Below, one piece after another: positions 24,328 through 26,467 of a stretch of 64,000 bases of DNA. The stretch lies in NCBI RefSeq assembly GCF_002278035.1, contig NZ_CP022604.1, positions 186,001-250,000 on the forward strand. The letters run 5' to 3'. Made by a program: the position numbers and the translations under genes. The DNA is from Ochrobactrum quorumnocens (lineage in GTDB: Bacteria > Pseudomonadota > Alphaproteobacteria > Rhizobiales > Rhizobiaceae). The notes beneath the pieces were generated by a model. It was given only the letters and a program-made list of their open reading frames with translations. It ran no database searches and was not told the DNA's origin. Position 1 is the stretch's first letter. Each line of letters begins with the position of its first letter.

Positions 24328-24767
24328 ATTTACTAAAGTTTTATTTTCATAGAATAAATATTGGCTTTTTGAAAATGCCGAAAAATCTTGAAATCATTAT
24401 GTATGGCTGACCCAAGAATCATGTGTTATGTAATACAGGTGGCTTACGGTTTTGTAGTCGATGATTTGAATTCGCGGATTCCGGCGCCATAGAATCCCTT
24501 CAGTTTATATTTGTTTGTCTGGCAATATATCGATGCCGGAGTGTGTATGCTTGCAGCGTTTTTAGAGTAAATATTGCTTCATAAGGAAAATGTTGGGATT
24601 CATGCAATGAAATGGGAAGATTTATACGAGAAGATACAATCATCCGATAATGCAGAGCAGTTATTTGAACACGTTAGAGCGATTTCCCGTCTGATTGAAT
24701 CAATCAGGGTTTTCAAATCAGTGTCGAACTGATTCAACATCCCTGCTGGTGAAGGAGGCCAGCATGG

Positions 24768-25714
24768 ATGGCTAAAGCTCTTTCACTCGATCTTCGCCAG
24801 CGCGTTGTGAATGCGATTGCCACCGGTATGTCCCGCAGACAAGCGGCTGAGCGGTTTGGTGTGAGCGCCGCCAGTGCTATTCGCTGGCAGAAGCAGTTCA
24901 GCGACACCGGAACCATTCAATCCGACAAGCAGGGCGGCGACCGTCGTTCGAAACACATCGACGCCCATGCCGCCACGATCCTTGCGCTTTACGAGACGAC
25001 GCCGGATATCACCCTTGCCGAAATCAAAGTGCGGTTGGCTGAGAGTGGCATAAGGGCCGGGATCGGCACGCTCTGGCGGTTCTTCGACCGGCACGGGATC
25101 ACGCGTAAAAAAAGACGGCGCACGCGGCCGAACAGGAGCGACCAGCTTTGATGCAAAAGCGCCAGGAGTGGTTCGAAAGCCAACCAGACCTCGATCCCGA
25201 GCGTCTGGTATTCATCGACGAAACCTCTGCTTCAACGAAGATGGCGCGCCTGTATGGTCGAGCACCGAAAGGTCAGCGGTGCCGGGCATCCGTCCCGCAT
25301 GGTCATTGGAAGACCACGACGTTCACCGCCGGCCTTCGACTGGGCGGCATGGCAGCTCCCATGGTGCTGGACGGCCCGATGAACGGCGACGCGTTCCTTG
25401 CCTATGTCAGCCAGGTTCTCGTTCCCGAACTGACGCCTGGCGATATCGTCATCATGGACAATCTTCCCGCCCACAAGGTTGCAGGCGTTCGCGACGCCAT
25501 CGAAGCGGCAGGGGCAGGCCTGTTCTACCTGCCGCCGTATTCACCCGACTTCAATCCGATTGAAATGGCATTCTCCAAACTGAAGGCCTTGCTTCGGGCC
25601 GCAGCCGCCAGAACCGTCCCTGACTTGTGGCAGGCCATCGCCGACGCCATCAAACAGTTCAAACCTGACGAATGCCGGAATTACTTCAAGGCTGCCGGGT
25701 ATGATGCTTTCTGA
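24768..25714 (+). CDS. IS630-family transposase, made by programmed -1 frameshift
   Basis: The first frame (24768-25151, 127 residues) holds the HTH region (LDLRQRVVNAIATGMSRRQAAERFGVSAASAIRWQKQF). The second (opening at 25148 as a separate ATG, but in frame from the slippery A7 upstream) holds the catalytic core: Asp in LVFIDET, Asp in IVIMDNLPAHK, Glu in NPIEMAFSKLK, the DDE triad. A -1 slip at 25108-25115 joins them as KKTAHAAEQERPALMQKRQEW, the usual sequence of full-length relatives. The start has GGAGG 9 bases upstream. The TGA stop at 25712-25714 overlaps an ATG reading into the interrupted luxR. Confidence 0.92.
25108..25115 (+). other. Slippery heptamer A7G for -1 frameshifting
   Basis: Seven A followed by G inside the transposase gene, just before the end of the first frame. 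Slipping back one base joins both frames in the order that IS630 transposases need. I see no clear downstream pseudoknot. Confidence 0.7.
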
Positions 25715-26364
25715 TGGGAAATTGCTCTAGATCTTATGCTGAAGCGCTCGGCTTTCAATATGCTTCATATACCATGTGTGTGCCGTCTCTGAACAGTGTT
25801 GCTCGCTGGGTGCGTTTTGAATCCTTGCCCGACGGCTGGCAGAAGCACTACGTCGCCAAGAAATACGCGGATATTGATCCGATTATTAGGCGAGGGATAA
25901 ATAGCATCGAGCCTTTGGTTTGGTCGGCTCGACAGTTTGCGGAAGCTCCCCAAATATGGGCGGATGCACAAGCGTTTGGTTTGAAGGCTGGTATTTCCCA
26001 GCCATGCTGGGCGGCTCAGGGGGGGGTTGGAATTCTCACATTCCTGCGCGAGAGACCAGCTTTGTCAGAAGGCGAAATCTCGATGTTGCGTCGCCAGATG
26101 CAGATTGTAACCAATCTTCTGCATCTTGCCATGTATGAACATGTCGATGTTCCCAGCATCAATTGTGTGGCGGAGGTTAATCTGACGGCACGTGAGCGCG
26201 AGATCCTGCGGTGGACGAGCGAAGGAAAGACTGCTGAGATTATCGGTAGGATCCTCAATATCTCGACCCGGACCGTTAATTTTCATATCAGCAATGTTCT
26301 CATCAAACTTGTTGCTGTGAACAAGGTACAGGCTGTCGCCAAGGCGCGGACTTTTGGCCTGCTC

Positions 26365-26467
26365 TAGAGCAGAATCTGACCGGAGTGAAACGAGGATTGA
26401 TAAGAATATACTGAAATAGACCAAATTAGAGCGCCGATCTGATCCAATCAGATCAAAACGCGTTCTA
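26365..26467 (+). repeat. Complete mosaic element after luxR
   Basis: 103 bp from TAGAGC (its TAG is the luxR stop) to GTTCTA. First palindrome contains GACCGGAGTGAAACGAGG, as at 1619-1722 in opposite orientation; second is centred on ATCTGATCCAATCAGAT. Confidence 0.8.

What the first reader, a model, noticed from the sequence alone, without database searches (positions are those of the whole stretch)
24607..26367. LuxR-type quorum-sensing receptor split cleanly by an IS630 element
Excision of the IS plus one TA restores one 235-codon frame. Every canonical autoinducer-contact residue and the HTH survive, so the loss looks recent. The receptor may have been knocked out by a single event, possibly reversible.
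Basis: seen in the sequence. Interest (0 to 1): 0.72.

Follow-up and report, generated by a model that had tools for sequence, protein, structure and literature searches.

The report
IS630 insertion splitting a BabR/BlxR receptor
A mobile element has recently landed inside the gene for a cell-to-cell signal receptor (the BabR/BlxR type of Brucella and Ochrobactrum), most likely switching it off in this strain while related bacteria mostly keep the gene whole.

Summary
Confirmed, with corrections. The gene is the metH-linked LuxR solo BabR/BlxR of a Brucella (ex-Ochrobactrum) genome. A 1051-bp IS630 element lies between two TA copies after codon 23. In three close species the pieces align to one gene and share a single TA; 38 of 38 other genus copies have no insertion there. 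An intact protein of unshown source, P0001, matches both pieces at 231 of 235 positions. The IS has three near-identical copies here and only distant relatives in 34 other genus genomes. The insertion looks young.

A knock-out is likely; reversibility is unsupported. Precedent: Sinorhizobium expR::ISRm2011-1.

The parts
24607..24676 (+). 5' piece of the babR/blxR orthologue: start codon and first 23 codons, ending in the target TA
   Evidence: identical to residues 1-23 of P0001 and of B. pituitosa L004
24675..24676 (.). left copy of the TA target
24677..25727 (+). IS630-family insertion sequence, 1051 bp
   Evidence: three full-length copies in this genome, the other two with 0 and 1 mismatches, each flanked by TA
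24677..24694 (.). left terminal inverted repeat (15 of 18 match the right end)
24768..25151 (+). transposase orfA, IS630-type helix-turn-helix
   Evidence: (PF01710, PF13384)
25148..25714 (+). transposase orfB, DDE_3 domain, in another frame from orfA; an A7 run lies at 25107-25113 (frameshifting there is inferred)
   Evidence: PF13358; NF033545, 145.5 bits, cut-off 100
25710..25727 (.). right terminal inverted repeat
25714..26367 (+). open 217-codon frame: ATG inside the IS end (overlapping the orfB stop by one base), 5 residues from the IS side (the last codon ends in the T of TA), then residues 24-235 of BabR
   Evidence: PF03472 119.7 bits, PF00196 64 bits; same layout at the other two IS copies
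25728..25729 (.). right copy of the TA target
26019..26028 (+). run of eight G and the codons of residues 122-123, which differ from the intact relatives compared
20490..24272 (+). metH, methionine synthase, the conserved upstream neighbour of blxR
   Evidence: NF007024, 2191.6 bits; PMC4338825 passages
27019..27939 (+). cysD, downstream neighbour (followed by cysN/C)

Best explanation
An IS630 element, found as such in no other genus genome searched, transposed into a TA after codon 23 of the babR/blxR orthologue. SHOWN: the interruption, the TA duplication, the empty sites in relatives, the near-identity of the IS copies, long-term purifying selection on the gene. INFERRED: full-length BabR is not made, because its reading frame from its own start runs into the IS and stops, and the rest lacks the native start, helix 1 and part of helix 2 of the ligand domain. 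The strain should then lack BabR regulation while VjbR and a third LuxR remain. The loss is probably tolerated: babR is broken by other lesions in further genomes, while vjbR is nearly always open.
For: Domain content and orthology: B. melitensis P0022 73%; PMC4338825 places blxR next to methionine synthase. Empty site: three species share a single TA; 38 of 38 other genus places run through the site. Recent: P0001 is intact and differs from the two pieces at 4 of 235 positions, sharing all 8 window residues that differ from B. pituitosa outside 122-123; the other IS copies differ by 0 and 1 base; the best-scoring match of the IS in other genus genomes is 71% over 779 bases (13 candidates a genome scored); dN/dS of the 3' piece against L004 0.044, L020 0.036, L005 0.071. 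The cut lies within predicted helix 16-29 of the intact protein.
Against: The 3' frame is open and has an ATG placed for coupling to orfB; its predicted fold is confident (mean pLDDT 90.3) and matches full-length LuxR receptors, so some function may remain. No expression data. dN/dS averages over a long branch and cannot see what happened after the insertion. The source of P0001 is not shown and it has two differences of its own (115, 157).
Confidence: 0.75

Rival explanations
1. The insertion makes a shortened receptor rather than a null. Ribosomes finishing the transposase (after a frameshift at the A7 run) restart at the ATG that overlaps the orfB stop and make a 217-residue protein with 5 IS-side residues in place of the first 23 of BabR. 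It might bind DNA without normal control by signal, or interfere with other LuxR proteins.
For: Stop/start overlap and open frame. All three IS copies lie in the direction of, and in frame with, the interrupted gene: babR, a GT25-type gene (PF01755) and an IS5-family transposase. Under four simple null models 3 of 3 has a probability of 0.003 to 0.035. Some related elements have another start/stop overlap there: an ATG overlapping the stop by another phase in 6 of 27. Both domains kept; fold predicted.
Against: This exact overlap is in 0 of 27 readable related elements. Of the 18 of 27 that have any outward ATG, GTG or TTG at this end, only 2 run open for 50 or more codons, so long in-frame fusions are no general rule. 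No good ribosome-binding site near the ATG by eye. The odds were computed after seeing the pattern, with n = 3. AlphaFold tolerates truncations, so a good model is weak evidence. Two further substitutions lie at the start of a strand of the ligand domain. The left part of the GT25-type gene and of the IS5 gene gave no Pfam match.
Confidence: 0.18
2. The interruption is reversible and works as an on/off switch, the IS leaving precisely in some cells.
For: TA duplication and otherwise near-intact pieces. Precedent in S. meliloti, where an expR+ strain Rm8530 is listed as a derivative of the expR102::ISRm2011-1 strain Rm1021 (PMC3418255, passages).
Against: Only one state is seen in the assembly. 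The 3' piece has two further substitutions in a conserved stretch. [quoted passage not shown] my inference, recalled for Tc1/mariner elements, is that such cuts usually leave extra bases, which would break the frame. The family of ISRm2011-1 was not checked.
Confidence: 0.05
3. The split, or the two-residue change, is an assembly artefact.
For: The IS is multi-copy, and the two-residue change lies in an unusual G run.
Against: Each of the three IS copies has its own flanks with TA on both sides. The genome is in 4 contigs and 99.99% complete. For the two-residue change I cannot exclude a sequencing error.
Confidence: 0.02

Closest known systems
BabR/BlxR of Brucella (LuxR solo next to methionine synthase)
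   Same: Both domains, nine canonical residues, metH neighbour, 73% identity to the B. melitensis protein P0022
   Different: Interrupted after codon 23; two substitutions at residues 122-123; cysD is the next gene named downstream, where the survey (PMC4338825) lists an aminotransferase
expR::ISRm2011-1 of Sinorhizobium meliloti Rm1021/Rm2011
   Same: A LuxR-type receptor of an alphaproteobacterium inactivated by an IS (PMC3418255 and PMC2848241 strain-table passages; PMC5977203 passage)
   Different: Another receptor and element; there the effect of restoring the gene is known, here no phenotype is known
IS630 family insertion sequences of alphaproteobacteria
   Same: TA duplication, inverted repeats, IS630 HTH and DDE_3 transposase; relatives at about 80% protein identity named IS630 family transposase in Bradyrhizobium
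   Different: ATG overlapping the orfB stop in this exact way, seen in 0 of 27 readable related elements, though 6 of 27 have another ATG/stop overlap

Membership tests
BabR/BlxR LuxR solo | Autoinducer-binding domain plus GerE helix-turn-helix | tested here: met
   PF03472 1e-34, PF00196 9.7e-18 on the 3' piece
BabR/BlxR LuxR solo | Nine canonical residues (TraR W57, Y61, D70, P71, W85, G113, E178, L182, G188) unchanged | tested here: met
   list of residues from PMC4338825; positions placed by me on the alignment
BabR/BlxR LuxR solo | Methionine synthase gene upstream | tested here: met
   PMC4338825 table passage
BabR/BlxR LuxR solo | No LuxI-type synthase with it | tested here: met
   none in the own genome (no control genome rang); the model does find synthases in 3 of 35 genus genomes, so the search can ring
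BabR/BlxR LuxR solo | One uninterrupted frame of about 235 codons | tested here: not met
   it is a disrupted orthologue, not a working member by sequence
BabR/BlxR LuxR solo | Binding of C12-type AHL and DNA | not testable with these tools
   no expression or binding data
IS630 family | TA target duplication and terminal inverted repeats | tested here: met
   TA on both sides of 3 of 3 copies; 15 of 18 terminal bases match
IS630 family | IS630-type transposase | tested here: met
   orfB passes NF033545; orfA matches the first part of that model below its cut-off
Reversible IS switch of a LuxR gene | Both states found in one strain | not testable with these tools
   assembly only; no reads

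The most novel reading that the evidence does not exclude
This IS makes translation-coupled fusions: its last bases carry an ATG that overlaps the transposase stop, and insertions that keep the 3' part of the hit gene in frame are favoured, so that it turns genes into shortened, IS-controlled forms instead of nulls. The N-truncated BabR would be one such product.
Probability: 0.12. Interest if true: 0.55.

Novelty: new member of a known kind. Interest (0 to 1): 0.3.

Why it matters
[quoted passage not shown] A natural recent disruption in a relative, together with two clearly broken copies and one without its usual start in the genus sample and a vjbR open in 34 of 35 genomes, suggests that BabR is the more dispensable receptor in this part of the genus. 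That can be tested by surveying genomes. The IS-end ATG is a small extra lead on how insertions may leave partial proteins.

Tried and rejected
Rejected: two unrelated LuxR parts (both pieces match the same intact proteins); an old, decayed split; relatives sharing the split (0 of 38 other genus places; none of the 75 proteins has the length 217, though clusters of 90% identity could hide one, and shorter proteins such as P0036, P0037 and P0044 do occur there). Consensus promoter scan: 6 sites against 1.6 expected; not used. I first read as showing no terminal ATG in related elements; a recount corrected this: 29 of 39 loci readable, 27 of them not this genome's own; exact overlap 0 of 27, an ATG overlapping the stop in another phase 6 of 27, any outward ATG, GTG or TTG 18 of 27, and 2 of those 18 open for 50 or more codons. 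The search for papers on transposase-coupled starts (7 papers with at least 4 of 5 terms, listing only) gave none that I recognised as the same case. Rows dropped: L036 (29% identity, another genus) from the orthologues; identical sequences were shown once. In one search the comparison of one IS copy used a wrong offset and was redone.

Full report
What is there. The window lies in a 5.65-Mb, 4-contig genome of the genus Brucella in the wide sense (ex-Ochrobactrum): the nearest named loci are B. pituitosa and B. grignonensis, both 95% identical to the 3' piece at protein level and 89-90% in DNA. Between metH (20490-24272) and cysD (27019-27939) lies a LuxR-type gene in two pieces, 24607-24676 and 25728-26367, separated by a 1051-bp element flanked by TA. 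The 3' piece has an autoinducer-binding domain and a GerE helix-turn-helix.

Which receptor it is. The closest proteins are 235-residue LuxR regulators, where named of Brucella and Ochrobactrum, and a B. melitensis protein matches at 73% (P0022). A published survey of LuxR solos gives methionine synthase as the neighbour of BlxR in Brucella and Ochrobactrum, with no change in the nine canonical residues (PMC4338825, passages). Both hold here. So it is the BabR/BlxR orthologue. The VjbR orthologue is elsewhere (L124 5622-6404, close to flhB and fliG); its name rests on that setting, recalled, and was not tested by a tree. The genome has three autoinducer-binding LuxR proteins and no LuxI-type synthase by PF00765 (in which no control genome rang); the same model finds synthases in 3 of 35 genus genomes, so the search works in this genus.

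The insertion. Blastn of the separate left and right pieces against B. pituitosa (L004), B. grignonensis (L020) and B. rhizosphaerae (L005) ends at base 6001 and begins at base 6000 of each locus: the pieces share one TA there. All 38 other places found in 34 other genus genomes (some genomes have two copies) run through this site without an insertion. The element is IS630 by orfA and orfB. It has two further full-length copies in the genome, with 0 and 1 mismatches and TA on both sides. In other genus genomes the best-scoring match is 71% over 779 bases (24 of 35 genomes, own included, have some match; 13 candidates a genome scored). In 101 family genomes, own included, 47 have a match; the best-scoring others are 72% over 779 and 73% over 673 bases, higher identities only over shorter stretches. 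It is not in the plasmid records at the 'near' setting. Its transposase has many relatives, including Bradyrhizobium proteins at about 80% (the best 120 of 7997 listed). So the element probably arrived and spread recently.

How recent. P0001, an intact 235-residue protein of unshown source, is identical to the 5' piece and differs from the 3' piece at 4 of 212 positions; it shares all 8 other residues at which the window differs from B. pituitosa. dN/dS between the 3' piece and L004, L020 or L005 is 0.044, 0.036 and 0.071, so the gene was under strong purifying selection for most of its history. It may be a change after the insertion or a sequencing error.

What it does. The native frame cannot give full-length BabR. 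The cut falls inside predicted helix 16-29 of the intact protein, so helix 3-11 and half of the next are lost. But the element ends in an ATG that overlaps the orfB stop by one base and is in frame with the 3' piece, leaving an open 217-codon frame. Its model is confident (pLDDT 90.3, pTM 0.79) and matches RhlR, QscR and SdiA structures. The other two IS copies have the same layout: the outward frame runs into a GT25-type gene (PF01755) and into an IS5-family transposase; the short left parts of these two genes gave no Pfam match. With the codon phases of TA in 36 long frames of the window, three of three such insertions have probability 0.003 to 0.035, by null; this was computed after the fact with n = 3. 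Among 27 readable related elements (of 37 not of this genome's own) none has this exact overlap, 6 have an ATG overlapping the stop in another phase, and of 18 with any outward start codon 2 run open for 50 or more codons. So the layout is not a general device of the group. I hold a knock-out as most likely, and a coupled, shortened product as a minority reading.

Setting in the genus. Of the 38 other places, 35 are open from a start codon through 235 or 238 codons. L056 (G011, by coordinates and sequence the B. pecoris locus L034) is frameshifted, L065 (G034) has a stop near codon 49, and L054 (G033, by the same token B. tritici LMG 18957, L029) has no standard start codon within 15 bases of the expected place, which need not mean loss. 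A database protein with a shortened C-terminus, P0037, was also seen. For VjbR, 34 of 35 genomes have no stop inside; the exception, G002, is 85% complete with 7% contamination and shows two TGA. That check looked at stops only, not at start codons. So babR appears to be lost more often, but the numbers are small and no tree test was done.

Literature. In B. abortus, BabR autoregulates and acts with VjbR in infection (PMC11925318, abstract and passages); BabR is described as much less characterised (PMC12713405, sections 4 and 10). The best precedent is expR of S. meliloti, disrupted by ISRm2011-1 in Rm1021 and Rm2011 (PMC3418255, PMC2848241, PMC5977203, passages). I saw no paper describing a disrupted babR in Ochrobactrum-type brucellae; the searches were (20 of 86 papers listed; 20 of 67 listed), listings only apart from the papers named.

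Verdict. A real, recent, single IS insertion into a known receptor gene: ordinary in kind, with two side leads (the IS-end ATG and repeated babR loss).

Noticed in passing
L123:4864-7730 (own genome, C2 near 939,900): A third LuxR protein lies between two proline-iminopeptidase-family genes (TIGR01250) and, by eye, has Met and Trp at the TraR W57/Y61 positions, the substitutions listed for the XccR/OryR/PsoR/NesR group (PMC4338825 passage), recalled as plant-signal LuxR solos.
   Followed up: partly
L125:2458-3508 and L126:2539-3589: The other two copies of the IS also lie in genes in the same direction and leave the 3' part in frame with the IS-end ATG.
   Followed up: partly
window 26019-26028: A run of eight G gives two adjacent residues unlike the intact relatives compared; a real change or a sequencing error.
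   Followed up: partly
L056 (G011), L065 (G034), L054 (G033): babR orthologues frameshifted, stopped, or without the usual start codon in three further genus genomes, while vjbR has no stop inside in 34 of 35.
   Followed up: partly
L067-L070 (G029, G014, G002): LuxI-type synthase genes are present in 3 of 35 genus genomes, two in G029, though Brucella genomes are described as lacking them (PMC12713405 section 4).
   Followed up: no
L013-L019: In several species about 1.5 kb more lies between babR and cysD than in the window, consistent with the aminotransferase gene named in PMC4338825.
   Followed up: no
L086, L088, L091, L099, L117, L119: Related IS630 elements whose orfB stop is overlapped by an ATG in another phase reading outwards; most of these frames are short.
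   Followed up: partly
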